Assembly (NCBI RefSeq): GCF_023278565.1
Contig: NC_064678.1
Span: 2,356,001 to 2,420,000 of the forward strand
DNA: 64,000 bases
Source: Colletotrichum lupini
Lineage: Eukaryota; Ascomycota; Sordariomycetes; Glomerellales; Glomerellaceae
Reading direction: 5' to 3'
Notes under the pieces: model-generated
Databases searched by the model: none
Seen by the model: the letters and a program-made list of their open reading frames with translations, nothing else
Told to the model about the DNA's origin: nothing
Shown: positions 35,834 to 61,430 of the stretch, piece by piece
Layout of the letters: each line of letters starts with the position of its first letter
How positions within the stretch are numbered: the stretch's first letter is position 1
Program-made: the position numbers and the translations under genes

Positions 35834-36174
35834 AGTATACTAATCTATACCTAGCGAGTATAGAGCTTATGTAATTTAAAAAATTAAGAGTCTTATTAAA
35901 TTAAACGTATTAATTTTTATATTTTAAAACTAAGTAATATATTTTAATAAGGTTTTAATTATTAAAAATATTTTAAATAAGTTAAGATATTATTATATTA
36001 GCTTATTAATTAAAAAGCTTGATAATAACTTAATTACTTTTATTAATTACTTAGGTAGTTCTTTATATAAAACTTATAATATTAATTTATTTATTTTAAT
36101 ATTCTATTTTTATTAGCTACTCGGGCGGTTTTGGATATCGTTTATTTAATTTTATTTATTTTAGTTTATTTTAA

Positions 36175-36343
36175 TATTATACCTTTACTAACTACTCGGG
36201 TAGTTCTTAATATCGTATATATAGTATTAATATATAGTATTAATAAATACTCTTACTATCTCGATAGACTATTTTTTTTTAGGATTTTTTAACTTTTTAA
36301 CTTTCCCTCTTATAAAGTTCATAACTACGGATTATTAACGGCT
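36175..36343 (+). repeat. 360-bp-spaced direct repeat, first copy
   Basis: Contains a mutated boundary-repeat unit (ACTCGGGTAGTTCTTAATAT) followed by a T-rich stretch and AACTTTCCCTCTTATAAAGT. The same order of words recurs at 36537-36703. Differences between the copies are mainly C/T and G/A transitions. Confidence 0.75.
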
Positions 36344-36536
36344 ATTATTATTACTTTATAAGCCGCTTACTTAGCTAAGTTTATTACTCTTTAAGTAATA
36401 GTAGCTTATAATAATATAATATTAGAGATACTCTCGTTATTATTATTAAAAGTAATACTAACCTTCTTATTACTAATATTCGTTTTTAACTTTAACTCGT
36501 ATATATATATATATTTATTTATTTTTTTGTTTTTTT

Positions 36537-36703
36537 TATTTTACCTTTACTAGTTGCTTGGGCGATTCTTAATATCGATTATATAATATTAATACATATT
36601 ATTAATAAATACTCCCACTATCTTAATAGACTAATTTTTTTAGATTTTTTAACTTTTTAACTTTCCCTCTTATAAAGTTCATAACCACGGATCATTAACG
36701 GCG
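36537..36703 (+). repeat. 360-bp-spaced direct repeat, second copy
   Basis: Second copy of the block at 36175-36343, with GCTTGGGCGATTCTTAATAT in the matching position and the same AACTTTCCCTCTTATAAAGT downstream. It keeps slightly more C and G than the first copy. Confidence 0.75.
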
Positions 36704-36787
36704 ATATTAGGCGCTATATATATATATATATATATATTATTTCGGGTTTTTTCTAAAATTAAAAAACGCTACTTCCCTCGCTATTTC

Positions 36788-36820
<33 letters not shown>
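36788..36820. repeat. (TTA)n microsatellite
   Basis: Eleven uninterrupted TTA triplets in AT-rich DNA. Confidence 0.9.
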
Positions 36821-36822
<2 letters not shown>

Positions 36823-37012
36823 TTTAAGAGTTTTACTATTAGGGTAGTACTATTTAGCTAACTGGGTAGTACTTTACTTTAATATAGCCCGTGCGGCTAA
36901 TTAGAAACTAGGAAATTTTTAGTATACTTTTTCTGATCTACCTCTTATACTTACCGTAAGCCTAAGCTTAAAATCTTTACTTTTTAAGTACGTATTTCTA
37001 TTACTACTTAGT

Positions 37013-37202
37013 TATAATAGATTCGGGATGCGGCCGGCGATAGGACGCCGATAACTTAGCGACCGGTATACGGATTTTATTATAAAAGAACTTTTTAAAA
37101 AGCAGAGCCCTTACGAAGGACTCTATAAGCTTTAGTTTTATAATATACCTATACCTATATTATAGCCTCGCTAGTTAAGTACTTATAGCCTAATTTCTTA
37201 TA
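37013..37202 (+). repeat. 5' LTR of element A
   Basis: 190 bp, starting TATAATAGATTCGGG and ending CTAATTTCTTATA. It differs from its 3' partner by about eleven positions, all C/T or G/A transitions, with the T or A state always in this copy. TTAGT precedes it directly. Confidence 0.95.
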
Positions 37203-37559
37203 ATTCTAAAGCTTTTACCTCTACGGAGTAACTAATATAAGTAATAATAGATTATAGAAACGAACAGAACGTTAACGAAACGACGCCTAGCTGTTAGTAA
37301 AGAGCCGTTAGCGCCGACGAGCTATAGCTATCTAGAGTCGACTACTCGACCCCATTCTATCTAGGAGAACGAGCCTACTATAGGGCAAGTCCTACCTGAA
37401 TACTAGCGTTTATAGAAAAGCTAGACGAAGAAGATAATTGGGGTAGATCACCCTTATAGGCTAGTTACCCCGTTAATACCCTAAAGACCCTATTTATTAT
37501 GAACGGGGCGTTTATTAGCGACCGATCGCTGGATATACGAGGTTAAGGTGCGTATAAAA

Positions 37560-38530
37560 GCGCGGGTAGTACTAAAATAGCTAGTTTAGTAGACCTTATA
37601 GGCCTAATAATAACTTATTTCTATAAGACGATAAAAATAATAGTCGAAGATCGAAACTAAGAACGGCGTCGATACGAGGAGCTCGTTTAATAGCTTACCG
37701 AGCGGCCGGCGACGTATCTAGGTCGACGAGAATATAAAAAGCCTCCTTTTTATAACTATAAACCGATCGGAGAAGAGTTTACGAGTGCTTAGGTAGCAGA
37801 CTAGATTATTACTATAGAGGTAAGTAATAAGCTTCGCATAAAAAGCACTATAGAATAGTATATCGAATAGGCCCTATCTAAGATATCCCTATTACTATAA
37901 ACGTAATAGTATAATTACGAGAAGAGCCTCTAGGATCCCCTCTCCTAGGGCGACTTCTTAGCGTTTATTTACTAATAGTACGTAGACCCCGAGACTTAGG
38001 AACGGGAATACTATAAAAAGCTAAGGACGAAGAAGCTAAAGGAGGGCTAGACCCCTACCTAGTTCCTTACTAAGTAGTTAGCGATCTATTATAACCTAGG
38101 CATAGAAGATATAGAGAATTCGAAAGTAGAGGCATACTAGTTCTTTTTTAAACTACTATTTTAGTTATAGGACGATCTAATTTATTATAGGGTCTTAATT
38201 AAGAGAGTACGCAATATAGCTTACGAGGCTAATAGACTATAGTCGTTAAATTAATAAAAGGGTAGTAACTAGTCGTAAAAGGACGGTAAGAAGAGGCTAT
38301 ATCCGTTATTAAAATAACCGCGTCGAATATCCCCTTTTTATAAAGAAAAGAGTAGGGAGAGCTCTAAGGGGCTAGGCTCTAGGGACTTACTAGGAGTAAT
38401 ATTGTAAAAGCCGTATAATAAAAGTGCTCGCGCCGAGCTATTATAAAAGCGTCGTAATAATAATATTAAGTACTTTATATATAATAAGATAAGCTATATA
38501 TTTAGTAAGTACTAGAAAAATAAGTCGGGA
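37560..38530 (+). pseudogene. gag relic of element A with CCHC zinc knuckle
   Basis: A Gag-like frame can be followed once TAA/TAG stops are ignored, for example the segment DFLAFIYQQYVDPE and the later GIEDIENSKVEAYQ (Q read for stop). A retroviral zinc knuckle lies at 38471-38512. The spacing x2, x4, x4 of C-C-H-C is intact, but all four metal ligands now read Tyr (TGC to TAC, CAT to TAT), which is what G-to-A and C-to-T change at CpA/TpG would cause. Gag would have formed the virus-like particle and bound RNA. Boundaries are approximate. Confidence 0.8.
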
Positions 38531-38699
38531 GGTAGGGGCGACGATAAGCTGACGTACCCCCGATCGAAGCTAACGTTAGTAACTATCTAACGGGTTACTA
38601 CCGAGCCGAGAGTTATAAAGGTCGACTTATTAAAAAATAAGTAGGTATAGGCGATATACTTAATACGCTTGCGCTAAGTATTAAGAGAGTACTGATAAG

Positions 38700-41475
38700 A
38701 ATAATTACGAAGGGTAAGGTAATAGTTCTATAAGGTATTACTAAAAGGCTAGTAGAAATTAATATAGATATATGCTCCGAGATAGATATTATTAGTACTA
38801 GGCTCGTAACCTACTTAGGGTTAACCCCGGCTACTACTATAGCTCCCTCGTTAAGGGATTTCTAGGGTAAAGCCGTAAGCTAGGGGAAAGCTTACTAATT
38901 AACGCTCTTCTTTATCGACTACTATAAGTAGCTAAGGAAAATTCGGCGACTATTCGCTATAGTTAATAAGGATAAAAGAATAGTAAACCTCCTACTATCG
39001 CGACTATTAATAAGCTAAGAGGGTATTCGTATTAACATAGCGACGAATATATAGTCGTATAAGCCTATCTCGGTCGCCGAATTAGAAATAATAGCTCGCG
39101 ATATCGTTAAGAATCGCAAGAGGGCGTATATATTATATATTACTACTATAAAAAGCATCGCGGGGGTAACGGAGACTAAACTACGAGGGGGTCTACTATT
39201 AGAACTTTAATTAGAAATAGAGACGTTCGACGAGTAGTTAGTAAAAGGACCGTAGTTATATAACGGGGTAGAATACTCTATTAACCTAGTTCCGAGTACT
39301 AAACTACCGTATAGTCCTATTTATTTATTAAGCGAGAAATAACTCGATAAGCTTCGCGCGTATATTACTAAGAACCTAGCGAACGGTCGTATTATATTTT
39401 TAGTTAGTAAGGCTAGGGTACTAATCCTTTTCGTATTAAAAAAAGACGGTACGCTACGCTTCTATATAAATTATTACGGGCTAAATAGGGTAACTATAAA
39501 AAATCGATACTTATTACCGCTTATCGGCGAGCTCTTAAATAGGCTTCGCGGAGCGAAATAAATCTTAAAAATAGATATTAGGGATGCTTACTACCGTATT
39601 TAAATTAAAAAAGAAGACTAATAGAAAATAGCGTTCCGGAGCCGATACGGTTATTTCGAGTATATTATTATACCTTTCGGGCTAATAAACGTACCCGCGA
39701 CGTTCTAGGCATATATTTACCGAGCGCTCGCCGACCTACTAAATACTTACTATATAGCATATATAAACGATCTAATAATTTACTTAATAATAAAGGAGTA
39801 GCATACGGAGGATATTAAAAAGGTCCTCCGACGTTTGCGTTTATACGGGCTTTTTACTAAACTATTAAAGTGCTCGTTCTATTAAAAGAGGGTCGAGTTC
39901 TTAAGTTATGTTATTATATTAGAAAGAATCGAGATTAACTCGTTACGAGTGCGAACGATCGCTAACTAGAAGGCGCTAAAGTCTATTAGGGATATCTAAG
40001 TATTCCTAGGGTTCTATAACTTCTATTAGAAGTTTATTACTAAATACTCGGGTATCGTTATACCGATAATAGTATTACTAAAAATAAAAAAGGGGTAGAT
40101 AAGGGACTTTTAGTAGACTAAAGAAGTAGACGAGGCGTTTAATTAGCTAAAAGTCGCTTTTATTTTAGTAACTGTACTTACGTATTAGAACCTATAACGT
40201 ATTATACGAGTAGAAACCGACGCTTTAGTTAAAGCTATCGTAGTAATCTTATTGTAATAGGCTAATAGAGAATAGCGACCCGTTACTTATTAGTCGTAAA
40301 AGCTTATGGATACGGAGTAGCGATGGGCTACGGGTTAATAAGAACTGCTCGCTATAATAAAAGGGCTAGAGTACTAGGCTTACTACCTCTAGGGCCTTTT
40401 ATAAAAGTTTATAATCTTAACGGATTACTAAGTACTTAAAGAAATAATTAGCGCACCGGCGCGGGACTTTTAAAAAAGGCTCGCGAGGTAGGTATATAAA
40501 CTATTAGTATTTAACTTTAACTTAGAACACCGGCTAGGGAAAACGAACCTAGCGGACGGTCTATTTAAAAAGCTAGACTATATAGAGGGGGAAGTGCTTT
40601 ATAAGGACGTCCTCCTTACGCTAACCTAAAAGCTACGTCTTATTAGCGAACTACCGCCTAACGTCTAATAAAAGATAATTAGCTTAAAAAGATAAAATAA
40701 TATTACTAAGGTATACGTTTAAGTAGTTAAGGCCTCCCTTTATAATCCTAGCTAGATATTAGCTAGTTCTAAAAACGGGGAATCCTCTCCCCTATATTAG
40801 TAGCGTATTATAGGGCGTACTAATAAAATAGTAATAGTTACTACCATAACGACTCGAAGTAAAAAAGTAAAAGAGTTATTAGCGAACGCTCGTCGACGGT
40901 CCGGTAAGGATAAAGAGGAGTCGGATAGAGCTAGGGTTATTATACTAGAATAGTATATCCTACGCCCCGTTATAAAAGAGCTTATAAGGGGTAAAATAGC
41001 ATTCGCTTCCTATCTCTCGCTAGAGACTAAAGAGCTCGTTAGAGGACTATAAGCTAAAAATAAGTTCTATATATTATAATCGGCGAGAGTTCGTACTACG
41101 GCTAGCGAGCTAAGAATATATTCGCTTAATAAATAGGGTATACTATTTTTTAAAAAAAGACTCGTTATTTTTTAAGTAAAGTCTTTTTAAATAGAAATCC
41201 TTTACTAATACTACGACGACTATAGGGTAGGTTATATAGGAGCTACGAAAACTCTCGAGCTAATCTAAAAGAAGTTTTACTAGGAAGATATTTAACGAGA
41301 TATTTAAGAATACGTTAAGAACTATGAGTATTATTTAGGAGTTATGACCCTAAGATATAAGCCGTACGGGTAGCTATAGTTATTATTACTACCCTTATAC
41401 CTATTTTAAGAAATATTTATAGACTTTATTACGGGGCTATTACCGAGCGCTCGTAATAATAGCGCAGAGTATAAT
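38700..41475 (+). pseudogene. pol relic of element A, first part (protease, RT, RNase H, integrase start)
   Basis: Protease-like segment at about 38757-38840 (SEIDIISTRLVTYLGLTPA). Reverse transcriptase at about 39430-39910 contains KKDGTLRF, IKNRYLLPLIGELLNRL, KIDIRDAYYRI and IPFGLINVPATF. The catalytic YxDD box reads YIND at 39760-39771, with the first Asp lost by GAC to AAC. RNase H starts near VETDA (40210-40224). The zinc-binding integrase region (about 41190-41340) and first catalytic Asp (FIDFITGL, about 41415) follow. Element B is inserted at 41475, between the first and later catalytic residues of integrase. Stops are TAA/TAG at former Gln or Trp codons. Confidence 0.88.
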
Positions 41476-41665
41476 TATAAAAGATTAGGCTATAAGTACT
41501 TAACTAGCGAGGCTATAATATAAGTATAAGTATATTATAAGACTAAAGCTTATAGAGTCCTTTATAAGGGCTCTGCTTCTTAAAAAGTTCTTTTATAATA
41601 AGATCCGTATACCGGTTGCTAAGTTATTAGCGTCCTATCGCCGGCCGTATCCCGAATTTATTATA
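41476..41665 (-). repeat. 3' LTR of element B
   Basis: 190 bp on the plus strand, from TATAAAAGATTAGGC to CCCGAATTTATTATA. About fourteen transitions separate it from the 5' LTR. ATAAT precedes it. Confidence 0.95.
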
Positions 41666-41670
41666 ATTAC

Positions 41671-41680
41671 TCCCCCCTTA
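41671..41680 (-). promoter_or_regulatory. polypurine tract of element B
   Basis: TCCCCCCTTA on the plus strand, that is TAAGGGGGGA on the element strand, five bases before the 3' LTR. It is the usual primer for plus-strand DNA synthesis. The same tract occurs next to the 3' LTRs of A and C. Confidence 0.8.
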
Positions 41681-41999
41681 CGTAACTTTAGTCCCTAAAG
41701 TTATTACGTAATATCTTCCTTTAACGCTAATAATAAAGCTATTAACGTTGTTATTTATAATAGATTCCGTAAGGCGTTAATAATATCCTTTTTTACCTAA
41801 GAATAAGGTATTATTCTTATTTCCTTATTTAACGGATGCTTTATTATTATTATTTAACGATAGCGCGCCGACTAGTTACTAAGTTAGTAATATATATTCG
41901 TAGTGAAGTATTCTAACCGTTATAATATATAAGAGCCTGCCTAACCTCGTAGTTATTATTATTATTAAGCTATTGATTATAGTAAAAGATTTTTCGTCC

Positions 42000-43970
42000 G
42001 TTACGAGTTGCGTATTTACTTTTTCTTTCCTCTTTCTATTTAGCGACCGTTTTACGAATTCTTTCTTATATAACTATACTTTTCTTTTTACGATATTCTA
42101 ATTCCGTATCGTTTCTTAATTACGACTCTCTTATTATACTATTACTAAGTATCTGCCAAAATATCTACTATTTCGCGTATCTAGGATATACTTAATATAG
42201 AGTATAATCTTAAGAAGGGCTTCTACGGTCTCCGCGGCGGTGCTCTTTATATATACTACTTAGCTAGTCTATATCGTAATATTAACGAGCTTATTTATAT
42301 CGCCGGCGCTCACGTCGCTAAGTATATTATTTATTAAATTAATAAAAAGAAGTGTTCTGTTATAAGTCGTCGAGTCCTCGCTAATCCGTTACTAAAATAT
42401 TAGCTAACGATATTTCTTAGGTTCTTAAGGAGCTATATAACGCCGCCTAGTTTACTTAGAATACTTTTATAGAGTTTTATAATACCGAGGAGTAGGGTAG
42501 CCTTAACTCCTATAAGCGCGGCCGCGTTCTCTATACTTTTAGCTATGCTATTAATATATAAAAAAAGGTAGTTACTTATATCGCTAACCCGTTAGCGGGT
42601 AATAAGGTAAAGAAGGTCTACTTTAAATAGGCTACTCTTTAAGAGCTCGTTACTAACTGCGAGTATTTAAACTTATTAATCTTGATTACGGTAAGTCGTC
42701 GGCGATCGTTTAGTAAATTTTCTTTTTATTAACTTAAATTTCTCTTCTTAGGCTAGTATTTTTAATACTAATAATAAGACTAAGATTATTTCTTGCCTTA
42801 GTTACCTCTAGTTAGCTTATTTTTATAATAATAGCCGTGCGACCGCTTTATAAAGTAACCTTAACGCTCTAGCTTAGTATTATAAGGAAACTCCTAAGGG
42901 TATTATTATTACGCATATCTAGGAGTTTTTTATTTTCCTTACTTTTTGTAAACGCGTCGCTAAGTTCTTAGTAAATAAGGTACTTATTTATACCGTTATT
43001 ATATATAGCGCTACCCCTATTTCCCGTAGTCCCGAGACTCGGACTCCTATTAAAAAGCGTACTCTTATTACTAACTATATTCTTAATAATAACGACGAGC
43101 GGGACGACTTCGGGTTTAAGTTTAATAAGTCTTAGCGCGAGGATACTAAATCTAAGGAGCTCGGTAGTAATTTAGAGAATTCTCTTTCTTAGCGTTATAA
43201 TAAGCGCCGCCGCTTTAATATTAATAACTTACCGACCCCTACCCATAACGCTCTCTTTAGTATAAACGAGGGTACCCTAGCCCTTAGTCGTATTATTCTA
43301 AATCTTAATAAGGCTAGTATTACGCTCCTCCCGCTCTAGGTAAAGGCTTTACGACGGCTCGACGAGGCTATTACTCGTATTAAAGTTAAAGCCGTAGGTC
43401 GTAATAAGTAGTTCGACGTTACTAAGTTCTTTACGAATATTAATATTACTAAGGTCCCTTAGCTCGACTAAGACTACGAGAGCGTTACCTCGGATAATAT
43501 CCCCCGTCCCCGACCCGTTATTAATAATAATAGCGTTACGGCCCCTACTTTGCCTTTTATTCTACCTCTTATTATAGCTCCCGTTATGCTTCTTATTATA
43601 GCTCCCGTTATGCTTTTTATTATAGCTCCTGTTATACTTCTTATTATAGCCTCTAATAGTAACTAAGTAGCGAACGCTCTGCGAACTATTATTATTAATA
43701 TATATAATACTCTGCGCGACTTTAACCGCCTCTCTTTTACTCGTCGTAATATTAATAAAGTTAACGGCCTTACTTTAAGTAATTAGCTAAGTACGCGCAC
43801 GAAGCCTCCCCGCTTTTTACTTACCGAGCGGACTACTATTACTAACTATTAAGCTTTAGAGGTATATACTAGAGCCGCTACTATTACCGCTAGTATTATA
43901 TAGGTTACTCCCCCTACGTAGCTAGATCTTAGCGATCTCTTAGCAACGTATTACCAAGGGTTATAATACT
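42000..43970 (+). pseudogene. opposite-strand gene-like frame in element B, with a spliceosomal-type intron
   Basis: Read on the plus strand, opposite to B's gag-pol. One frame runs from about 42090 (SRIQDILNIEYN near 42175) to about 42360. A second runs from about 42370 to 42690 and includes SVTKILANDIS and NSYKRGRVLYTFSYAIN. The intron is 42691-42751 (61 bp, GTAAGT to CTTCTTAG). A third run follows from 42752 to about 43965 with no further frame change, including LKELYN-like and VKALRRLDEAI segments. In that last part I count about fifteen stops, all TAA or TAG and none TGA, as expected if CAA/CAG (Gln) were hit by RIP. The intron length is not a multiple of three, so splicing is needed to keep the frame. 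The change near 42365 has no obvious intron and sits beside an A-rich run; a -1 frameshift or an unseen intron is possible. Copies A and C keep the same frames. I do not recognise the protein. It converges with pol, which ends near 44080. Confidence 0.6.
43565..43652 (+). repeat. 24-bp minisatellite in element B
   Basis: About four 24-bp units containing TTATTATAGCTCCCGTTATG. They lie in frame within the opposite-strand gene-like region, so each unit adds eight residues. The matching block has five units in A and about six and a half in C. Confidence 0.85.
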
Positions 43971-44079
43971 ATATCTTTTTCTTAAAGATTGCGCTAAGCT
44001 AAATAAAAAGGGTTCTATAGTATATTATTAATTAACTTATTTTTAGCGACCTTTTGCCGCGAACTTAACGTTTATTATC

Positions 44080-47000
44080 CTATTTTATATATACCCTTTT
44101 TTTATAGCGTTCGAATCTATTAACTATTTCCGCTACCCCTTTAAAATACTTAATAAGCTTTTACGTATTATACTTAGTAAGCTACCTAGCTTATTTAATA
44201 AGATATCGTAAGTTTCCTCCCTCGCTTTATATCGCGACGATTTCTTTAACTTCCTAAACGTCTTACTCGTCCTCTAATTCTAAAAGATTCGCCGTTTAGT
44301 TACTAACCGTTCGGCAATTTCCCTATAGCTTAAGCTAGGAAACTAAGAAAATATTATATATTCTCCGATACTACTTTAGTAAATATACTCGGTAAGCCTA
44401 TTTCCCTACCCTTTTAGCTATTACTACTTTAATATATTTCGGCGCTAGTTTATTATTCTTAAATTGTATATTCTTCGTTAATAAGCTAACGACCTCTTTG
44501 CGATTAAACTCCTTTAGGGTATATTTTTTATTATAATAAGCTACTTAGCTCTTAGAAGCTTATACCTACGCTCGCGTAGCCTGGGCCCTAATCTCCCTAA
44601 TTTTCTAAACCCTTTTCCGAACCCCCTAGACTATAGCCTTATAATTAGGTATATATTTAACGTACCTAGGGTAGTAGCCGTATAGTACTATATACGGGGA
44701 TACCTTTATAGTAAAGTGTTAACTATTATTATATATAAACTTGGCCTCCTCTAGCTACGCTACTTACCTATTTAGCGAGCCCTCGGTATAGATCCTTAAA
44801 TACTTTTTTAATATTTAATAAGTTCGCTCTATTTAGCTATCCGTTTATAAGTAGTACGTAGTAAATAGTTAGCGACGTATTGCCCGTTCCTTAGCGAACT
44901 CTTCTTAAAATGCGCTTATAAAGAACTTATTTTTATCTGTAATAATACTTTTAGGTATACCGAACTTATATTCGACCTCTCGGTATAAAATACTTATTAT
45001 TTATATTACGTTAAGTATCTTAACGGTGGGTAAGAACTTTGCGAACTTTATTATATAATAAATAATAACTACGATACTATCGTACTTTGCGCCGTTACTA
45101 CGAGCGCTCGGTAATAGCCCCGTAATAAAGTCTATAAATATTTCTTAGAATAGGTATAAGGGTAGTGGTAGTAACTATAGCTACCTATACGGCTTATATC
45201 TTAGGGTTATAACTCCTAAATAATACTTATAGTTCTTAACGTATTCCTAGATATCTTATTAGATATCTTCTTAATAGAACTTCCTTTAGATTAGCTCGAG
45301 AGTTTTTATAGCTCCTATATAACCTATTTTATAGTCGTCGTAGTATTAGTAAAGGATCTCTATCTAAAGAGACTCTATTTAAGGAATAACGAGTCTTTTT
45401 TTAAAAAATAGTATGCCCTATTCGTTAAGTAAATATGCTCTTAGCTCGCTAGCCGTAGCGCGAACTCTCGCTAATTATAATATATAGAACTCGTCTTTAG
45501 TTTATAATCTTTTAACGAGCTCCTTAGTCTCTAGCGAGAGATAAGAAACAAATACCGTTTTGCCCCTTATAAGCTCTTTTATAACGGGGCATAGGATATA
45601 CTATTTTAGTATAATAACCTTAGCTCTATCCGACTCCTCTTTATTCTTACCGGACCGTCGACGAGCGTTTACTAATAACTCTCTTATTTTCTTACCTCGA
45701 GTCGTTATAATAGTAATTATTACTATTTTATTAGTACGCCCTATAACACGCTACTAATATAAAAGAGAGGATTCCCTATCCCTAGAGCTAGCCGATATCT
45801 AGCTAGGATCGCGAAGGGAGGCCTTAACTACTTAAATATATACTTTAGTAATATTATTTTATCTTTTTAAGCTAATTATCTTTTACCGGACGTCGGGCGG
45901 TAGTTTATTAATAAGACGTAGCTTCTAGGCTAGCGTAGGGAGGACGTCTTTATAAAGCACTTCCCCTTTTATATAATCTAGCTTTCTAAATAGACCGTCC
46001 GCTAGGTTCGTTTTCCTTAGTTAGTATTTTAAGTTAAAGTTAAATATTAATAGTTTATATACTTACCTCGCGAGCCTTTTTTAAAGGTCCCGCGCTAGTG
46101 CGCCGATTACTCCCTTAAGTACCTAGTAGTCCGTTAGGATTATAAACTTTTATAAAAGGCCCTAGAGGTAGTAAGCCTAGTACTCTAGCCCTTTTACTAT
46201 AGCGAGTAGTTCTTATTAGCCCGTAGCCTATTGCTACTCCGTATCCGTAAGCTTTTATGATTAATAAGTAACGGGTTACTATTCTCTATTAGCCTATTAT
46301 AATAAGATTATTACGATAGCTTTAACCGAAGCGTCGGTTTTTACTTATATAATATATTATAGGTTCTAGTATATAAGTACGGTTGCCGAAATAAAAGCGA
46401 CTTTTAGCTAATTAAACGCCTCGTTTACTTCCTTAGTCTATTAGAAGTCCCTTATTTACCCCTTTTTTATTTTTAGTAATGCTATTATTAGTATAACGAT
46501 GCCCGAGTATTTAGTAATGAACTTCTAATAGAAGTTATAGAACCCTAGGAATACTTAGATATCCCTAATAGACTCTAGCGCCTTTTAGTTAGCGATCGTT
46601 CGCACTCGCGACGAGTTAATCTCGATTCCTTTTAGTATAATAATATAACTTAAGAACTCGACCCTCTTTTAATAAAACGAGTACTTTAATAGTTTAGTAA
46701 AAAGCCCGTATAAACGTAGACGTTAGAGGACCTTCTTAATATCCTCTATATACTACTCCTTTGTTATTAAGTAGATTATTAGATCGTTTATATATACTAT
46801 ATAGTAAGTATTTAGTAGGTCGGCGAGCGCTTAGTAAATATACGCTTAGAACGTTGCGGGTACGTTCGTTAGCCCGAAAGGTATAATAATATACTCGAAG
46901 TAACTGTATCGGCTCCGGAACGCTATTTTCTATTAGTCTTCTTTTTTAATTCGGATACGGTAATAAGTATCCCTAATATCTATTTTTAAAATCTATTTCG

Positions 47001-47860
47001 CTCTATAAAGCTTATTTAGGAGCTTGCCAATAAGCGGTAGTAAGTATTAATTTTTTATAGTTACCTTATTTAGCCCGCGGTAGTTTACGTAGAGGCGTAG
47101 CGTGCCGTCTTTTTTTAATACAAAGAGGATCGGTGCCCTAGCCTTATTAACTAAAAGTATAATACGACCGTTCGCTAGGTTTTTAGTAATATACGCGCGA
47201 AGCTTATTAAGTTATTTCTTACTTAACGGATAAATAGGACTATACGGTAGTTTAGTACTTAGAACTAGGTTAATAGAGTGTTCTACCTTATTATATAACT
47301 GCGGTCCCTTCGCTAACTACTCGTCGAACGTTTCTATTTTTAATTAAAGTTTTAGTAATAGACCTCCTCGTAGTTTAGTCTCTATTACCCCCGCAATACT
47401 TCTTATAGTAGTAATATATAATATATATGCCCTCTCGCAATTTTTAACGATATTGCGAGCTATCGCTTCTAGTTCGGTAACTAAGATAGGCTCGTATAAC
47501 TATATATTCGTTATTATATTAATATAAATACCCTCCTAGCCTATCGATAGTCGTAATAATAAGAGGTCTACTATTCTTTTATCCCTATTGACTATGGCGA
47601 ATAGTTACTAAATCTTCCTTAGCTACTTATAATAGTTAATAAAGAAGAGCGTTAACTAGTAAGCTTTCCCCTAGCCTACGGCTTTACCTTAGAAGTCCCT
47701 TAACGAGGGAGCTATAGTAGTAGCCGGGGTTAACCCTAAGTAGGTTACGAGCCTAGTACTAATAATATCTATCTCGGAGTATATATTTATATTAACTTCT
47801 ATTAGCCTTTCGGTAATACCTCGCAGAATTATCGCCCTGCCCTTCGTAATTATTCCTATC
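44080..47860 (-). pseudogene. pol relic of element B
   Basis: Reading leftward from about 47860: protease-like segment (about 47730-47810), RT with the catalytic box as YIND at about 46780-46800, and RNase H near 46330-46370. The integrase zinc-binding and core regions cover about 44400-45420 (the core matches the parts of A on both sides of B). The chromodomain is at about 44150-44240. Because B is uninterrupted, it shows the normal colinear order of pol. Stops of the RIP type break every domain. Boundaries are approximate. Confidence 0.85.
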
Positions 47861-48029
47861 GGTACCCTCTTAATACTTAGCGTAAGCGTATTAGGTATAT
47901 CGCCTGCGCCTACTCGTTTTTTAATAAGTCGACCTCTATAACTCTTAGCTTAGTAGTAACCCGTTAGATAGTTACTAACGTTAGCTTCGATTAGGGGTAC
48001 GTCGGCTTATCGTCGCCCCTACCTCCCGA

Positions 48030-49000
48030 CTTATTCTTTTAGTACTTACTAAATATATAGCCTATCTTATTATACGTAAAGTACTTAATATTACTACTGC
48101 GACGCTTTTATAATAGCTCGGCGCGAGCACTCTTATTATATAGCTTTTATAATATTACTCCTAGCGAGTCCCTAGAGCCTGGCCCCTTAGAGCTCTCCTT
48201 GCTCTTTTTTTTATAAAAGGGGGATATTTGACGCGGTTACTCTAATAACGGATATGGCCTCTTCTTACCGTCCTTTTATAACTAGTCGCCGCCCTTTTAT
48301 TAATTTAATGACTATAGTTTATTAGCTTCGTAAGCTATATCGCGTACTTTTTTAATTAAGACCTTATAACGAATTAGGTCGTCCTATAGCTAAGATAGTA
48401 GTTTAAAAAAGAACTAGTATACCTCTACCTTCGAATTCTCTATATTTTCTATACCTAGGTTATAATAGATCGCTAACTACTTGGCGAGGAACTAGGTAGG
48501 GGTCTAGCCCTCTTTTAGCTTTTTTATCCTTAGCTCTTTATAGTATTCCCGTTCTTAAGTCTCGGGGTCTACGTACTATTAGCGAATAAACGCTAAGAAG
48601 TTGCCCTAGGAGAGGGGATCCTAGAGGCTCTTTTTGTAATTACGCTATTATGTTTATAGCGATAGGGATATCTTAAATAGGGCCTATTTAATATATTATT
48701 CTATAGTGCTTTTTATACGAAGCTTATTACCTACCTCTATAATAATAATTTAGTTTACTACTTAGGTACTTGTAGACTCTTCTCCGATCGGTTTATAGTT
48801 ATAAAAAGGAGGCTTTTTATATTCTCGTTAACCTAGACGCGTTATTGGCCGCTCGGTGAGCTATTAAACGAGCTCTTTGTATTAACGCCGTTCTTAGTTT
48901 TGATCTTCGATTATTATTTTTATCGTTTTATAAAAATAGGTTATTATTAGGCCCATAGGGTTTACTAAACTAGCTATCTTAGTATTACCCGCGCCTTTAT
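48030..49000 (-). pseudogene. gag relic of element B
   Basis: Same Gag-like frame as in element A, on the minus strand. The zinc knuckle is at about 48055-48097 with its x2, x4, x4 spacing, ligands again replaced by Tyr, and a conserved GGC (Gly) kept where A has AGC. Boundaries are approximate. Confidence 0.78.
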
Positions 49001-49351
49001 GCGCGCCTTAACTTTATACGTTTAGCGATCGGTTATTAATAAACGCCCCGTTTATAATAGATAGGGTCTTTAGGGTATTAACGGGGTAACTAACCCGTAA
49101 GGGTAATCTGCCCCGATTATCTTCTTTATTTAGCTCTTCCGTAAACGCTAGTATTTAGGTAAGACTCGCCCTATAATAAGCTCGTTTTCTTAGATAGAAT
49201 AGGGTCGAGTAGTCGACTCTAAATAGCTATAGCTCGTCGGTATTAATAGCTCTTTACTAACGGCTAGGTATCGTTTCGTTAACGTTCCGTTCGTTTCCGT
49301 AATTTATTATTACTTATACTAATTACTCCGTAGAGATAGAAGTTTTAGAAT

Positions 49352-49541
49352 TATAAGAGATTAGGCTATAAGTACTTAACTAGCGAGGCTATAATATAAG
49401 TATGGGTATATTATAAGACTAAAGCTTATAAAATCCTTCGTAAGGGCTCTGCTTTTTAAAAAGTTTTTTTATAATAAGATCTGTATACTGGTCGCTAAGT
49501 TATTAGCGTCCTATTGCCGGCCGCATCCCGAATTTATTATA
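49352..49541 (-). repeat. 5' LTR of element B
   Basis: 190 bp on the plus strand, from TATAAGAGATTAGGC to CCCGAATTTATTATA. ATAAT (49542-49546) follows and completes the target-site duplication, after which the integrase of element A resumes. Confidence 0.95.
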
Positions 49542-50560
49542 ATAATAGTATCGTAATTATTATTTATTATATAATAAAGTTCGCGAAGTTCTTACTTACT
49601 ATTAAAATACTTAACGTAGTATAAATAGTAAGTATCTTATACTGGGAGGTTGAATATAAGTTCGGTATGCCTAAAGGTATTATTACGGATAGAAATAAGC
49701 TTTTTATAAGCGCATTTTAGGAAGAGTTCGCTAAGGAACGGGCGATGCGTTACTAACTATCTACTGCGTACTACTTATAAACGGATAGCTAAACGGAGCG
49801 AACTTATTAAATATTAAAAAAGTATCTAAGGATCTATGCCGAGGGCTCGTTAAATAAGTAAGTAGCGTAGCTAGAAGAGGCCGAGTTTATATATAATAAT
49901 AGTTAATACTTTACTATAAAGGTATCCCCGTATATAGTACTATACGGCTACTACCCTAAGTACGTTAAATATGTGCTTAATTATAAGGCTATAGTTTAGG
50001 GGGTTCGGGAAAGGGTTTAGAAAATTAGGGAGATTAGGGCCTAGGCTACGCGAGCGTAGGTATAAGCCTCTAAGAGCTAAGTAGCTTATTATAATAGAAG
50101 ATATACCCTAAAGGAGTTTAATTATGGAGAGGTCGTTAGCCTATTAACGAAAAATATATGATTTAAGAATAATAAACTAGCGCCGAGATATATTAAAGTA
50201 GCGATAGCTAAAAGGGTAGGGAAATAGGCTTACTAAGTATATTTATTAGAGTAGTATTAGAGAATATATAATGTTTTCTTAGTTTCCTAGCTTAAGCTAT
50301 AAGGAAATTACTAAACGGTCGGCGACTAGATAGCAAATCTCCCAGAGTTAGAGAACGAGTAAGACGTTTAGGAAGTTAAAAAAATCGTCGCGATATAAGG
50401 CGAGGGAGGAAACTTACGATATTTCGTTAAATAGGCTAGGTAGCTTACTAAGTATAATATATAGGAGCTTATTAAGTATTTTAAAGGGGTAGCGGAAGTA
50501 GTTAATAAATTCGAACGCTATAAAAAAAGGGTATATATAAAATAGGATAATAAACGTTAA
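49542..50560 (+). pseudogene. pol relic of element A, second part (integrase core and chromodomain)
   Basis: Continuation of the integrase cut by element B. It includes ITDRNKLFISAF, then the region that in Ty3 integrases reads like HPQTDGQTER (here with stops), EEAEFIYNNS and NRRYTLKEFNYGEVV. A chromodomain at about 50400-50525 keeps the pattern FVK-W-A-G-W...Y-N-T-W-E with both Trp codons now stops, then FKGVAEVVNKFER. Chromodomains of chromoviral integrases recognise heterochromatic histone marks (established for the MAGGY class). This explains membership of the family and may explain the clustering here. Confidence 0.85.
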
Positions 50561-50659
50561 GTTCGTAACGAAAGGTCGCTAAAGATAAGTTAATTAATAA
50601 TATACTATAGAACCCTTTTTATCTAGCTTAGCGCAATTTTTTAAAAAAAGATATAGTAT

Positions 50660-52640
50660 TATAACCCTCGGTAATACGTCGCTAAGAGATTATTAAGATA
50701 TAGCTACGTAAGGAGAGTAACCTATATAATATTAGTAGTAGTAATAGTAGCTCTAGCGTATATTTCTAAAGCTTAATAGTTAGCGATAGTAGTCCGCTTA
50801 GTAAGCGAGAAGCGGGGAGGCTTTGTGCGCGTACTTAGTTAACTACTTAGAGTAAGGCCGTTAACCTTATTAATATTATGATAGGTAAGAGGGAGGTAGT
50901 TAAAGTCGCGCAGAGTATTATATATATTAATAATAATAGTTCGCAAAGCGTTTGCTACCTAGTCGCCGTTAGAAGTTATAATAAGAGGTATAATAGGAGC
51001 TATAATAAGAGGTATAACGGGAGCTATAATAAGAGGCATAACGGGAGCTATAATAGGAAGTATAACGGGAGCTATAATAAGAGGCGGAGTAAGAAGTAAA
51101 ATAGGGGCCGTAATGCTATTATTGTTAATAACGGGTCGGGGACGGGGGACGTTATCTAAGGCGACGCTCTCGTAGTCCTAGTTAAGCTAAGGGACCTTAA
51201 TAATATTAATGTTCGTAAAGAACTTAGTAATATCGAACTACTTATTATGACCCGTAGCTTTAACCTTAGTATGAGTAATAGCCTTATCGAGCCGTCGCAG
51301 AGCCTTTATTTAGAGTAGGAGGAGCGTAATACTAACTTTATTAAGATCTAAAATAATATAACTAAGGGCTAGGGTACCCTCGTCTATACTAAAAAGAGCG
51401 TTATAAGTAGGGGTCGGTAAGTTATTAACATTAAAATAGTAGCGCTTATTATAATACTAAGAAGGAGAATTTTTTAAATCGCTACCGAGCTCCTTAGATT
51501 CGGTATCCTCGCGCTAGGACTTATTAAACTTAAACCTAAAGTCGTCCCGCTCGTCGTTATTATTAGGAATATAATTAATAATAAGAGTACGCTTCTTAAT
51601 AAGAGTCCGAGTCTCGGGACCGCGGGAAATAGGGGTAGTACTATATATAGTAACGGTATAAGTAAGTACTTTATTCGCTAAGAACTTAGTAACGCGTTTA
51701 TAAAAAATAGGGAAAGTAAGAAACTCTTAAATACGTATAATAATAACGCCTTTAGGAGTCTTTTTATAGTACTAAGCTAGAGCGTCGAGGTTATTTTATA
51801 GAGTAGTTATATAGCTATCGTTACGAAAATAAGCTAGCTAGAGGCGACTAAGGTAAGAGATAATCTCAGTCTTATTATTAGTATTAAGGATACTAGCTTA
51901 AAAAGAGAAATCTAAGTTAGTAAGAAGAAAATTTGCTAAACGATCGCTAACGACTTACCGTAATTAAAATTAATAAGTTTAAATACTTATAGTTAGTAGC
52001 GAGCTCTTAAAGAATAACTTATTTAAGGTAGACTTTTTTCGCTTTATTACCCGCCGACGGGTTAGTAATATAAGCGGCTACCTTCTCCTATACGCTAGTA
52101 ATATAGCTAAAGGTATAGAGAACGCGGCTGCGCTTATAAGAGTTAAAGCTACTTTACTCCTCGGTATTACGGAACTCTATAAGGGTATTCTAAGTAAACT
52201 AGGCGGTACTATATAGCTCCTCGGGAACTTAAGAGATATCGTTAGCTAATATTTTAGTAACGGATTAGCGAGGACTCGACGACTTATAGTAGAACACTTT
52301 TTCTTATTAATTTAATAAATAATATACTTAGTAACGTAAGTACTAGCGATATAAATAAGCTTGTTAATATCGTAATATAAACTAGCTAAGTAGCGTATAT
52401 AAAGAGTACCACCGCAGAGACTACGGAAGCCCTTCTTAGGATTATACTCTATATTAAGTATATCCTAAATACGCAAAATAGTAAATATTTCGGCAAATAC
52501 TTAGCAATAGTATAGCAAGAGAGTCGTAATTAGGAAACGATACGGAATTAGAATATCGTAAAAAAAAAAGTATAGTTATATAAAAAAGAATTCGTAGAAC
52601 GGTCGCCGAATAGAAAGAGGGAAGAAAAAATAAACACGCG
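50660..52640 (-). pseudogene. opposite-strand gene-like frame in element A
   Basis: Counterpart of the plus-strand frame in element B, here on the minus strand. It contains RIQDILNIEYNPKKGF and, in the next frame, SVTKILANDISQVPEELY and NKAKKVYLK. The intron is at 51958-51898 (61 bp) with donor GTAAGT and a perfect TACTAAC branch sequence, but its last two bases read AA instead of AG, consistent with a RIP change. Stops are TAA/TAG. It converges with the end of pol. Function unknown. Confidence 0.6.
50974..51093. repeat. 24-bp minisatellite in element A, five units
   Basis: Five head-to-tail 24-bp units, each containing AGCTATAATAAGAGG or a close variant, inside the opposite-strand gene-like region. 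The sense translation (SYNKRYNG repeats) comes from the non-coding direction if the opposite-strand reading is correct. Confidence 0.9.
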
Positions 52641-52969
52641 ACTCGTAACGAACGAAAAATCTTTTATTATAATCGATAGCTTAGTAATAATAATAACCGC
52701 GAGGTTAGGCAGGCTCTTATATATTACAACGGTCGGAATACTTTACTACGAATATATACTACTAACTTAGTAACTAGTCGGCGCGCTATTACCGAATAAT
52801 AATAATAAGGCATCCGTTAGATAAGGAGACAGGAGCAATGCCTTGTTCTTAAGTAAGAAAGGATATTATTAACGCCTTACGGAATCTATTACGAATAACG
52901 ACGTTAATAGCTTTATTATTAGCGTCAAAGGAAGATATTACGTAATAACTTTGGGGACTAAAGTTACGT

Positions 52970-52980
52970 AAGGGGGGAGT
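52970..52980 (+). promoter_or_regulatory. polypurine tract of element A
   Basis: AAGGGGGGAGT just before the 3' LTR, the expected plus-strand DNA primer. Confidence 0.8.
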
Positions 52981-52983
52981 AAT

Positions 52984-53173
52984 TATAATAGATTCGGGAT
53001 GCGGCCGGCGATAGGACGCCGATAACTCAGCGACCGGTGCACGGATCTTATTATAAAAGAACTTTCTAAGAAGCAGAGCCCTTACGAAGGACTCTATAAG
53101 CTTTAGTCTTATAATACACCTATACCTATATTATAGCCTCGCTAGTTAAGTGCTCATAGCCTAATCTCTTATA
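52984..53173 (+). repeat. 3' LTR of element A
   Basis: 190 bp, TATAATAGATTCGGG to CTAATCTCTTATA. Less mutated than the 5' copy. TTAGT follows at 53174-53178. Confidence 0.95.
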
Positions 53174-53178
53174 TTAGT

Positions 53179-53508
53179 ACGTATACTTCTAATTATACTT
53201 CTACCTACTTACTTCTATTTTTACTTGACTACTTACTTACTTACTTACTTACCTACTTACTTATTTTTACTTTTACTTAATTATTTTTATTTCTAACCTC
53301 TATTACTATATCGTTATTATTATATAGTTAATTAATAATAAATTTATTATAACTTTTAATACTAAAGGTTAATTTAGTAGGCCCTCGTAATATTACTACT
53401 CTTTTTTTATATATTAAAAGCCCTCTTATAAACGGCGCGCTTATTAATTTAATTAATACCCTTATAACTACCCTCTAGGCCTTTATTTATAACTATAGTT
53501 TTATAATC
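53179..53508. other. AT-rich spacer between elements A and C
   Basis: About 330 bp of RIP-like AT-rich sequence without coding potential. It contains an (ACTT)n-type microsatellite at 53229-53264. The last five bases, TAATC (53504-53508), are the left target-site duplication of element C. Confidence 0.7.
53229..53264. repeat. (ACTT)n microsatellite
   Basis: An imperfect run of ACTT units with one ACCT variant, between the two retrotransposons. Confidence 0.85.
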
Positions 53509-53698
53509 TATAATAGATTCGGGATACGGCCGGTTATAAGACGCCGATAACTTAGTAACTAATATACGGATCGTATTATAAAAGAACTTTTTAAAAAATA
53601 GAGCCCTTATAAAGGACTTTATAAGCTTTAGTTTTATAATATATTTATATTTATATTATAGCCTCGCTAATTAAGTATTTATAGCCTAATCTTTTATA
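53509..53698 (+). repeat. 5' LTR of element C
   Basis: 190 bp, TATAATAGATTCGGG to CTAATCTTTTATA. TAATC precedes it. Confidence 0.95.
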
Positions 53699-54039
53699 AT
53701 TCTAAAGCTTTTACTTTTATAAAATAATTAATATAAATAATAATAAATTATAAAAACGAACGGAACGTTAACGAAACGACGCTTAGTTATTAATAAAGAG
53801 CTATTAGTATTAATAAGCTATAACTATTTAGAGTTAACTACTTAACCCTATTTTATTTAGAGGAACGAGCTTATTATAGGATAAGTCCTATTTAAATATT
53901 AGTATTTATAAAAGAGCTAAATAAAAAAAATAATTAGAGTAAATTACCCTTACGAGCTAGTTACCTTATTAATACTTTAAAGACCTTATTTATTATAAAC
54001 GGGGCGTTTATTAATAACTAATTACTAAATATATAAAAT

Positions 54040-55010
54040 TAAGGCGTATATAAAAGCGCGGGTAATATTAAAATAGTTAGTTTAATAAACCCTATAAGCT
54101 TAATAATAACTTATTTTTATAAGATAATAAAAATAATAATTAAAAATCGAAACTAAGAATAGTATTAATATAAAGAGCTCGTTTAATAACTTACCGAGCG
54201 GTTAGTAATACGTCTAGGTTAATAAAAATATAAAAAGCCTCCTTTTTATAACTATAAACTAATTAAAAAAAAGTCTACGAGTACTTAAATAGTAAACTAA
54301 ATTATTATTATAAAAATAAGTAATAAGCTTTATATAAAAAGTATTATAAAATAATATATTAAATAGGCCCTATTTAAAATATCCTTATTATTATAAACGT
54401 AATAGTATAATTATAAAAAGAGCCTCTAAGATCCCCTCTCTTAGAGCGACTTCTTAGCGTTTATTTATTAATAATACGTAGACCCCGAGACTTAAAAATA
54501 AGAATATTATAAAGAGCTAAGAATAAAGAGGCTAAAAGAGAACTAAACCCCTACTTAGTTCTTTGCTAAGTAATTAATAATTTATTATAACCTAGGTATA
54601 GAAAATAAAAAAAATAAAAATTAGAGGCATATTAGTTCTTTTTTAAACTACTATTTTAATTATAGAACGATCTAATTTATTATAAGGTCTTAATTAAAAA
54701 AGTACGTAATATAGCTTACGAAGCTAATAAATTATAATTATTAAATTAATAAAAGGGCGGCGACTAGTTATAAAAGGATAGTAAAAAGAGGCTATATTTA
54801 TTATTAAAATAACCGCGTTAAATATCCCCTTTTTATAAAAAAAAGAATAAGGAGAGCTCTAAGGGGCTAGGTTCTAAGGACTTACTAAGAATAATATTAT
54901 AAAAGCTATATAATAAAAGTACTTATACCGAGCTATTATAAAAGCGTCGTAATAATAATATTAAGTACTTTATATATAATAAAATAGGCTATATATTTAG
55001 TAAATATTAA
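54040..55010 (+). pseudogene. gag relic of element C
   Basis: Colinear with the gag of A but with more stops. The zinc knuckle at about 54966-55007 has all four ligands replaced by Tyr, with the conserved Gly (GGC) kept. Boundaries are approximate. Confidence 0.75.
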
Positions 55011-55199
55011 AAGAATAAGTTAGGAAGTAAGGGTAATAATAAGCTAATATATTCCTAATTAAAGCTAACGTTAGTAACTGTTTAACGGGTTATTACTAAG
55101 CTAAGAGTCATAAAAGTCGACTTATTAAAAAATAAGTAAGTATAAGTAATATACTTAATATGCTTATATTAAGTATTAAGAAAGTATTAATAAAAATAA

Positions 55200-59000: not shown

Positions 59001-59129
59001 TAAGTTAATTAATAATATACTATAAAACCCTTTTTATTTAGCTTAGCGTAATTTTTTTAAAAAAAATATAATATTATAACCCTTAATAATACGTTGCTAA
59101 AAAATTACTAAGATCTAGCTACGTAGGGG

Positions 59130-61080
59130 GAGTAACTTACGTAATATTAATAATAATAATAGCGGCTCTAGCGTATACTTTTAAAACTTAATAATTAGTA
59201 ATAGTAATCCGCTGAGTAAGTAAAAAGTAAAAAAGCTTTATATACGTACTTAGCTAACTACTTAAAATAAGGCTATTAACCTTATTAATATTATAATAAG
59301 TAAGAGGGAGGTAATTAAAGTCGCGCAGAGTATTATATATATTAATAATAATAGTTTATAAAACGTTCGCTATTTAGTTACCGTTAAAGGCTATAATAAG
59401 AAGTATAATAGGAGCTATAGTAAGAGGTATAATAAGACGTATAACGGGAGTTATAATAAGAGGTATAACGAGAGCTATAATAAGAAGTATAACGAGAGCT
59501 ATAATAAGAAATATAACGGGAACTATAATAAAAAGCGGAGTAAGAGGTAAAGTAGGGGGCATAATACTATTATTATTAATAATAAGTTAGGGACGGGGGA
59601 CGTTATTTAAAGTAACGCTCTCGTAGTCTTAGTTAAGCTAAGGGACCTTAATAATATTAATATTTATAAAGAACTTATTAACGTCGAACTACTTATTACG
59701 ACTTATAACTTTAACTTTAATATAAATAATAACCTTATTAAGCTATTATGAAGCTTTTATTTAGAGCGGGAAGAGTATAATACTAGCCTTATTAAGATTT
59801 AAAATAATATAACTAAGGGCTAAGGTACCCTCGTTTATATTAAAAAGAGCGTTATAAGTAAGGGTTAATAAGTTGTTAATATTAAAATAGCAGCGCTTAT
59901 TATAATATTAAAAAAAAGAATTCTCTAAGTTATTACTAAGCTTTTTAAATTTAGTATCCTCGCGCTAGGATTTATTAAACTTAAACTTAAAGTCGTCCTA
60001 CTTATTATTATTATTAAAAATATAATTAGTAATAAAAGTACGCTTTTTAATAAGAGTCCGAGTCTCGGGACTATAAGAAATAAGGGTAGCGTTATATATA
60101 ATAATAATATAAATAAGTACCTTATTTATTAAGAACTTAGTAACGCGTTTATAAAAAATAAGAAAAGTAAAAAACTCTTAAATACGTATAATAATAACGC
60201 CCTTAAGAATCTTTTTATAATACTAAGCTAGAGCGTTAAAATTATTTTATAAAGCGGTCATACGGCTATTATTATAAAAATAAGCTAGCTAGAGGTAACT
60301 AAAATAGAAAATAATCTTAATTTTATTATTAATATTAAGGATACTAGCTTAAAAAAAATTTCTAAGTTAGTAAAAAAAGAATTCGCTAAACGATTACTAA
60401 TAACTTATTATAATCGAGATTAATAAGTTTAAATACTCGTAGTTAGTAACGAGCTCTTAGAGAGTAGCCTATTTAAGATAGACCTTTTTTATCTTATTAC
60501 CCGCTAATAAGTTAGTAATATAAATAGCGACCTTTTTTTATATATTAATAATATAACTAAAAGTATGAAGAACGTAGCCGTATTTATAAAAATTAAAGCT
60601 ACCCTACTCCTTAGTATTATAAAACTTTATAAGGGTATTTTAAATAAACTAAGTAGCGCTATATAGCTCTTTAAGAACTTAAAAAACATTATTAGCTAAT
60701 ATTTCGGTAATAAATTAGCGAGGACTCGACGACTTATAGTAAAACACTTCTTTTTATTAATTTAATAAATAATATACTTAGTAACGTAAGTACCGGTAAT
60801 ATAAATAAGCTCGTTAATATCGTAATATATATTAGCTAAGTAGTATATATAAAGAGCACCGCTACGGATATTATAAAAGCCTTTCTTAGGATTATACTCT
60901 ATATTAAGTATATCCTAAATACGCAAAATAGTAAATATTTTGATAAATACTTAGTAATAATATAGTAAGAGAGTCGTAATTAAAAAACGATACGGAATTA
61001 GAATATTATAAAAAGAAAAGTATAGTTATATAAAAAAGAATTCGTAGAACGGTTACCGAATAAAAAGAGAGAAAAAAAAA
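59130..61080 (-). pseudogene. opposite-strand gene-like frame in element C
   Basis: Counterpart of the frames in A and B. The intron region (about 60350-60410) keeps TACTAAC, but the donor G is mutated (ATAAGT) and one base is missing near the acceptor. The surviving stretch at 59374-59562 on the minus strand, with its Ile/Leu-rich repeats, is the minisatellite part of this frame. RIP has made it look like a membrane segment. Confidence 0.55.
59389..59544. repeat. 24-bp minisatellite in element C, about 6.5 units
   Basis: Six full 24-bp units and one half unit (59437-59448), each containing CTATAATAAGA(A/G) or a close variant. The half unit would keep the frame (12 bp). Confidence 0.85.
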
Positions 61081-61416
61081 ATACGTAACTAATAACGAAA
61101 AAAAAATCTTTTATTATACTTAATAGCTTAGTAATAATAATAACCACGAGGTTAAGCAGGCTCTTATATATTATAATAATTAGAATACTTTACTACGAAT
61201 ATATATTACTAACTTAGTAACTAGTTAGCGCGCTATTACTAAATAATAATAATAAAATATCCGTTAAATAAGGAGATAAGAATAATACTTTATTCTTAAA
61301 TAAAAAAGGATATTATTAACGCCTTATAGAATCTATTACGAATAACAACGTTAATAGTTTTATTATTAATATTAAAAGAAGATATTACGTAATAACTTTA
61401 GGGACTAAAGTTACAT

Positions 61417-61427
61417 AAAGGGGGAGT
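61417..61427 (+). promoter_or_regulatory. polypurine tract of element C
   Basis: AAAGGGGGAGT before the 3' LTR, matching the tracts of A and B. Confidence 0.8.
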
Positions 61428-61430
61428 AAT

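What the first reader, a model, noticed from the sequence alone, without database searches (positions are those of the whole stretch)
42000..43970. Conserved, apparently spliced gene on the opposite strand of a fungal chromovirus
All three elements (B plus strand 42000-43970; A minus strand about 50660-52640; C minus strand about 59130-61080) carry a gene-like frame between pol and the 3' LTR, opposite to gag-pol and convergent with it. Seen directly: a 61-bp intron-like segment in A and B with GTAAGT donor (A and B), TACTAAC (A and C) and AG acceptor (B). Removing it joins two frames that otherwise disagree. After it, about 400 codons continue in one frame, where about fifteen stops are all TAA/TAG. 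That is the expected result of C-to-T change in CAA/CAG. Inference: before RIP this was a real protein gene travelling with the element. Antisense ORFs are known in some plant LTR elements, but I do not know of a spliced one in a fungal chromovirus.
Basis: partly seen in the sequence, partly recalled or inferred. Interest (0 to 1): 0.82.

Follow-up and report, generated by a model that had tools for sequence, protein, structure and literature searches.

The report
Spliced antisense gene in fungal retrotransposon
A family of now-mutated jumping genes in an anthracnose fungus seems to have carried an extra three-exon gene on the strand opposite to its own replication genes, placed so that its introns can survive copying through RNA; similar extra genes are known, but no relative of this one was recognised.

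Summary
Host: a Colletotrichum. The three window elements are copies of one Ty3/gypsy, probably chromovirus, family; about 102 loci of the antisense gene were scored in the genome, all with in-frame stops. Changes of codon register coincide with both intron-like segments (so do 7 of 2791 shifted controls). 37 of 40 scored pol copies have it beside them. dN/dS cannot be tested: copies differ almost only by transitions. No relative was found in Pfam, the PDB or (exon 3 only) 5.8 billion proteins. [quoted passage not shown] Verdict: most likely a real, spliced, now dead accessory gene; a new variant of a known kind. Expression and protein function are inferred.

The parts
41470..49543 (-). Element B, LTR retrotransposon with pol on the minus strand, inserted into element A
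   Evidence: Direct LTRs 41470-41667 / 49346-49543, 92%; A's halves 37012-41471 and 49545-53180 flank it
41470..41667 (-). 3' LTR of B
   Evidence: repeat D14
49346..49543 (-). 5' LTR of B
   Evidence: repeat D14
44329..47118 (-). pol: RVT_1, RT_RNaseH_2/RT_RNaseH, Integrase_H2C2, SH3_Tf2-1, read in two overlapping pieces with X at stops
   Evidence: Integrase_H2C2 and SH3_Tf2-1 are below the curated cut-off in B; SH3_Tf2-1 is above it in copy L007
44110..44253 (-). place of a weak chromodomain match, seen in copy L007 only (1 of 4 copies tried in that frame; none in B)
   Evidence: Chromo E 0.011, below cut-off; mapped to B by offset; B none
42015..42110 (+). pyrimidine-rich stretch, picked by eye (74% C+T against 57% in 41680-44470), possible promoter/leader of the antisense gene
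   Evidence: suggestive only
42161..42361 (+). exon 1 of the antisense gene (67 codons); proposed start codon at its first codon (ATG in 6 of 40 copies, ATA in 33, ATT in 1)
42362..42420 (+). intron 1, 59 bp, phase 0: (A/G)TAAGT ... GCTAAC ...
42421..42690 (+). exon 2 (90 codons)
42691..42751 (+). intron 2, 61 bp, phase 0: GTAAGT ... TATTAAC ...
42752..43966 (+). exon 3 (405 codons with the terminal TAA, which is TAA in 40 of 40 copies)
43567..43650 (+). 24-bp (8-codon) tandem repeat inside exon 3, 3.5 copies in B; copy number varies between elements
50659..52488 (-). same gene in element A (introns 52287-52229 and 51958-51898)
59074..60938 (-). same gene in element C (introns 60737-60679 and 60408-60349)

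Best explanation
Before RIP this was a protein-coding accessory gene of a Colletotrichum Ty3/gypsy (probably chromovirus) element: three exons and two short introns, on the strand opposite to gag-pol, starting about 0.5 kb inside the 3' LTR and ending about 0.14-0.36 kb from the last pol domain matched. Shown: position, orientation, exon-intron grammar, codon register, association with the element. Inferred: transcription, splicing, translation. The antisense placement explains how introns persist in an element that copies itself through RNA. The genomic RNA is the gag-pol strand, on which these segments read CT...AC and are not splice sites, so they would be reverse-transcribed intact; only the antisense mRNA is spliced. 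Most likely role (inferred by analogy, about 35%): a regulatory accessory protein of the element, as proposed for plant antisense ORFs and described for retroviral HBZ. Every locus scored has in-frame stops, so the gene looks dead in this genome as far as examined.
For: Intron grammar in 40 aligned copies. Both intron-like segments coincide with codon-register changes found from composition alone (path at penalty 5: 42165-42387, 42388-42616, 42751-43937); 7 of 2791 circular shifts do as well. RNY periodicity in all three exons. In-frame stops in B are 23 of 561 codons against 81 of 953 in B's own pol frame: the frame is at least as open as a known gene after RIP. 15 of 40 copies differ in length at the tandem repeat, each by a multiple of 12 bp; elsewhere in the three exons there is one indel, +2 in L046. 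37 of 40 scored pol copies have the gene beside them, same side and strand; about 102 loci scored. A pyrimidine-rich stretch lies just upstream of the start.
Against: Codon-based strand tests do not decide: pol-trained score -0.057 per codon (bootstrap 95% -0.131 to 0.019); host-trained score +0.051 (0.001 to 0.100), but that model fails on pol (-0.009). The opposite strand in the same register has only 24 stops of 561 in B. At stricter penalties (8, 12) the register path keeps exon 3 only, and at penalty 5 the exon 2 block ends 74 bases before the donor. In exon 3, 14 of 18 stop columns are stops in all 40 copies, so ancestral sense codons are mostly not visible. Copies come from a nearly uniform source: no selection test. 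The repeat unit is itself a multiple of 3, so its length changes are weak evidence. No homologue found. No RNA data. Segments of the same strict grammar also occur at 44208 within pol (14 of 40 copies) and at 43824 on the minus strand (10 of 40), while the new intron 1 has the strict form in only 3 of 40.
Confidence: 0.82

Rival explanations
1. The coding strand is the sense strand (gag-pol strand): an extra sense ORF, env-like or otherwise, whose codon register is mirrored on the antisense strand.
For: RNY structure is strand-symmetric; the in-register minus frame has 20 stop columns of 404 in exon 3 against 17; the pol-trained strand score leans slightly, not significantly, to the minus strand.
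Against: At both register changes the splice signals read GTAAGT-CTAAC-YAG only on the plus strand; in B's 41680-44470 the one minus-strand segment of the lax grammar lies inside exon 3. Start codon and pyrimidine-rich stretch fit the plus strand. No Pfam match at E <= 1 in the three minus-strand frames of 41680-43970.
Confidence: 0.08
2. A spliced non-coding antisense RNA that regulates the element (dsRNA or interference); the codon-like periodicity is a relic of an older captured gene.
For: Antisense non-coding transcripts are described for several retroelements (passages of PMC7264820), and antisense transposon-derived lncRNAs are reported for Blumeria hordei (PMC10648671, title and start of abstract in a search listing only).
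Against: About 560 codons in register with phase-0 introns are more than such an RNA needs; stop density about half that of pol.
Confidence: 0.06
3. Chance: RIP makes AT-rich period-like DNA and frequent GTAAGT/CTAAC look-alikes.
For: In B two further intron-like segments exist in the same 2.8 kb on the plus strand and one on the minus strand; TAA/TAG-only stops are a RIP effect.
Against: RNY periodicity reached by 0 of 1000 shuffles in exon 3; both register changes matched by intron-like segments in only 7 of 2791 shifts.
Confidence: 0.04

Closest known systems
brtn of Boty-like elements (Botrytis cinerea, also reported for Sclerotinia), Zhao et al. 2011
   Same: Fungal Ty3/gypsy element, a Boty-like gag-pol described with a CHROMO domain; extra gene between pol and 3' LTR, antisense (PMC7264820: section 5 and passages; passages of PMC4227169, and PMC8365987)
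   Different: No similarity detected: exon 3 readings found no protein at E <= 0.1 in a database that holds fungal proteins. The BRTN sequence itself was not in hand, so this is not a direct test. Whether brtn has introns was not stated in what I saw; the original paper is not held.
[quoted passage not shown]
   Same: Place, orientation, presence in most copies of a family, no clear homologues; [quoted passage not shown]
   Different: Plants; Retand is a non-chromovirus lineage; no TRP28 (PF04195) match here; introns are not mentioned in either paper (term 'intron' 0 times)
HTLV-1 HBZ
   Same: Antisense gene with spliced and unspliced RNA and a nuclear protein (passage of PMC10186651); antisense promoter in the 3' LTR (passage of PMC7264820)
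   Different: Retrovirus; no sequence relation claimed or tested; analogy only

Membership tests
Ty3/gypsy chromovirus | RT, then RNase H, then integrase in pol | tested here: met
   RVT_1, RT_RNaseH_2 and RT_RNaseH above cut-off, then Integrase_H2C2 and SH3_Tf2-1, both below cut-off in B; the integrase catalytic core gave no match
Ty3/gypsy chromovirus | chromodomain at the end of integrase | tested here: inconclusive
   Chromo E 0.011, below cut-off, in 1 of 4 copies tried in the pol frame, directly after SH3_Tf2-1; none in B
Antisense aORF-3R (extra gene between pol and 3' LTR) | opposite strand, between pol and 3' LTR | tested here: met
   the strand rests on the splice signals
Antisense aORF-3R (extra gene between pol and 3' LTR) | present in most copies of the family | tested here: met
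   37 of the 40 pol copies scored, of 132 candidates
Antisense aORF-3R (extra gene between pol and 3' LTR) | transcribed from its own or an LTR antisense promoter | not testable with these tools
   no RNA data
brtn (Boty) | sequence homology to BRTN | tested here: inconclusive
   no hit for exon 3; BRTN not compared directly; exons 1 and 2 were not searched in the protein database
Retand TRP28 proteins | PF04195 domain | tested here: not met
   no such Pfam match; RIP damage weakens the test
env-like gene | sense orientation | tested here: not met
   splice signals place the gene on the antisense strand; sense frames of the region have no Pfam match
env-like gene | membrane protein | not tested
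   not computed

The most novel reading that the evidence does not exclude
An RNA-copied element captured (or evolved) an intron-containing gene on its antisense strand and amplified it to about 100 copies with both introns kept. The orientation itself protects the introns, and the protein belongs to a family with no described member.
Probability: 0.4. Interest if true: 0.62.

Novelty: new variant of a known kind. Interest (0 to 1): 0.46.

Why it matters
If expressed relatives confirm it, this is an intron-bearing accessory gene kept through an RNA life cycle because of its orientation. It would extend antisense accessory genes from plant Gypsy elements, Boty and retroviruses such as HTLV-1 to a Colletotrichum family, and offers a way to ask how such genes are acquired and whether they control transposition. 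It also shows that RIP-degraded elements can hide genes.

Tried and rejected
Stop counting as proof of the strand: rejected. At the 4 variable stop columns of exon 3 the other codons seen were CGA 38, CAA 5 and CAG 1; at the 2 variable ones of 42364-42690 they were CAG 5 and CAA 2, so the CAA/CAG idea is partly borne out. Codon-usage model from RIP-treated host genes: it did not recover the pol frame reliably, so it was not used. Strand score: undecided. Codon-position test of substitutions in place of dN/dS: in 40 copies only 2 shared transversion columns in exon 3 and 1 in 42364-42690; 18 more divergent copies differ from B by at most 1.7% transversions against 17-21% transitions; rejected as uninformative. 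Rows dropped: L029 and L043 before the 40-copy counts (large insertion or truncation in the aligned part); L029, L043, L046, winA and winC left out of protein alignment A1. Homology: P0003 (0 of 6578 candidates); A1 of 37 exon 3 readings (0 of 7993 scored at E 0.1); Pfam (one chance-level match, DUF7632 E 0.048, in 1 of 37); PDB (0). In one search the third query (from L012) was misplaced and is not counted. One search compared 40 pol places with 47 of the 114 rows (recounted), so the three without a partner were not followed up. Structure prediction was not run: an orphan, RIP-mutated reading without alignment depth would mean little, and it would need stops read as a residue.

Literature searches: (listings; few of the listed papers were opened). 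In what I saw, brtn is the only fungal case of such a gene; I noticed no report for Colletotrichum. The C. truncatum repeat paper PMC6180176 was searched for six terms, 0 matches.

Full report
What was checked. The window lies in a 63.4-Mb, 12-contig genome. Its host is a Colletotrichum: the OGT-like ORF at 24572-26563 has Colletotrichum proteins as its best named hits, for example 92% identity over 84% of the query to C. fioriniae. The elements show RIP indices (TA/AT 1.59-1.87, (CA+TG)/(AC+GT) 0.08-0.16) against 0.74-0.75 and 1.11-1.22 in the gene-rich part. The AT-rich block from about 37 kb on holds three copies of one element of about 8.1 kb: A, split at 41471/49545 by the insertion of B (41470-49543), and C (53509-61620).

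The element. In B, pol is on the minus strand: RT_RNaseH_2 (E 3.5e-15), RT_RNaseH, RVT_1, and below cut-off Integrase_H2C2 and SH3_Tf2-1, with the start of RVT_1 upstream, also below cut-off. In one of four further copies tried in the same frame, SH3_Tf2-1 passes its cut-off and a weak chromodomain follows it (E 0.011, below cut-off). So it is a Ty3/gypsy element, probably a chromovirus; the chromodomain is not proven, and gag was not identified.

The antisense gene. Aligning 42 copies (winB, winA, winC and 39 loci) and counting over 40 showed a second segment of the same grammar, 42362-42420. Its donor is ATAAGT in B, GTAAGT in 5 of 40 copies and ATAAGT in 35; GCTAAC at 42403-42408 is in 34 of 40; the acceptor is TTAG in 23 and TTAA in 17. 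Both segments are in phase 0. They separate three codon-register blocks: 42161-42361 (67 codons, ATG at its first codon in 6 of 40 copies), 42421-42690 (90 codons) and 42752-43966 (405 codons with the terminal TAA, present in 40 of 40). In A the gene runs 52488-50659 and in C 60938-59074, on the minus strand.

Is it more than chance? RNY codon structure against dinucleotide-preserving shuffles: reached in exon 1 by 5, exon 2 by 19 and exon 3 by 0 of 1000. A register path trained on the inside of exon 3 alone placed blocks at 42165-42387, 42388-42616 and 42751-43937 at switch penalty 5; with penalties 8 and 12 only the exon 3 block remained. Circularly shifting B's four plus-strand intron-like segments against that path explained both register changes in 7 of 2791 shifts. 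In-frame stops in B are 23 of 561 codons, against 81 of 953 in B's pol frame.

What does not help. Stops being TAA/TAG only is a general effect of RIP. Stop counts alone do not choose the strand: 17 of 404 stop columns in the proposed exon 3 frame, 20 of 404 in the in-register minus frame. Two codon-based strand scores were undecided or failed their control. The strand therefore rests on the splice signals, with weaker support from the proposed start codon and a pyrimidine-rich stretch before it (74% C+T at 42015-42110, picked by eye).

Family-wide association. With the exon 3 reading as query, 102 of 150 first-look candidates were scored, giving 114 rows; 12 of these I take as second pieces of the same loci, so about 102 loci. 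Every row lists in-frame stops; counts are lower bounds. Of the 40 pol copies scored (of 132 candidates), 37 have the antisense gene on the expected side and strand at 879-1168 bp, 25 of them at exactly 931. Copies differ from B by 11-21% transitions but by 0-1.7% transversions over 59 comparisons. They derive from a nearly uniform source followed by RIP, which leaves no selection test within this genome. Of 40 copies, 15 differ from B in length at the 24-bp tandem repeat, by 12, 24, 48 or 60 bp; elsewhere L046 has +2 in exon 3 and C has -1 in intron 2.

Relatives. Nothing in Pfam beyond one chance-level match, the PDB or the protein database, which does hold fungal proteins. The protein-database and PDB searches used exon 3 only. 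The negative result is limited by RIP damage to the query.

How it most likely works. Shown: place, orientation, exon-intron grammar, codon register, fixed association. Inferred: an mRNA starting inside or just past the 3' LTR, two splicing events, and a protein of about 560 residues. Because the genomic RNA is the other strand, on which the two segments read CT...AC, introns here are not lost in reverse transcription; this follows from the known retrotransposition cycle and from the sequence. A regulatory role is an analogy with plant aORFs and HBZ (passages seen), not a result.

Comparison. [quoted passage not shown] A Boty-like gag-pol is described with a CHROMO domain (passage, PMC4227169). 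So the kind is known, also in a fungal chromovirus. New here, as far as I could see: a family in Colletotrichum with two introns and no detected relative. Whether brtn is spliced I could not see.

Noticed in passing
37012-53180: Element B is inserted in opposite orientation into element A, splitting it at 41471/49545.
   Followed up: partly
43567-43650: A 24-bp (8-codon) tandem repeat within exon 3 varies in copy number between elements: 15 of 40 copies differ from B there, by 12, 24, 48 or 60 bp.
   Followed up: yes
G000 (whole genome): 150 RT_RNaseH_2 matches scored of 264 candidates, falling mostly into several Gypsy classes by open-frame length (85, 89, 97/99, 123, 141 codons and this family's 95), all with in-frame stops listed; whether other classes carry antisense genes was not examined.
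   Followed up: no
44208-44257 (plus strand): A further GTAAGT-CTAAC-YAG-like segment on the antisense strand, within the pol region (strict form in 14 of 40 copies); probably chance, or an intron of a longer antisense transcript.
   Followed up: no
12001-13000 and 36001-37000: Two further very AT-rich stretches (about 22% GC) at or next to the gene-rich part, probably other RIP-mutated repeats.
   Followed up: no
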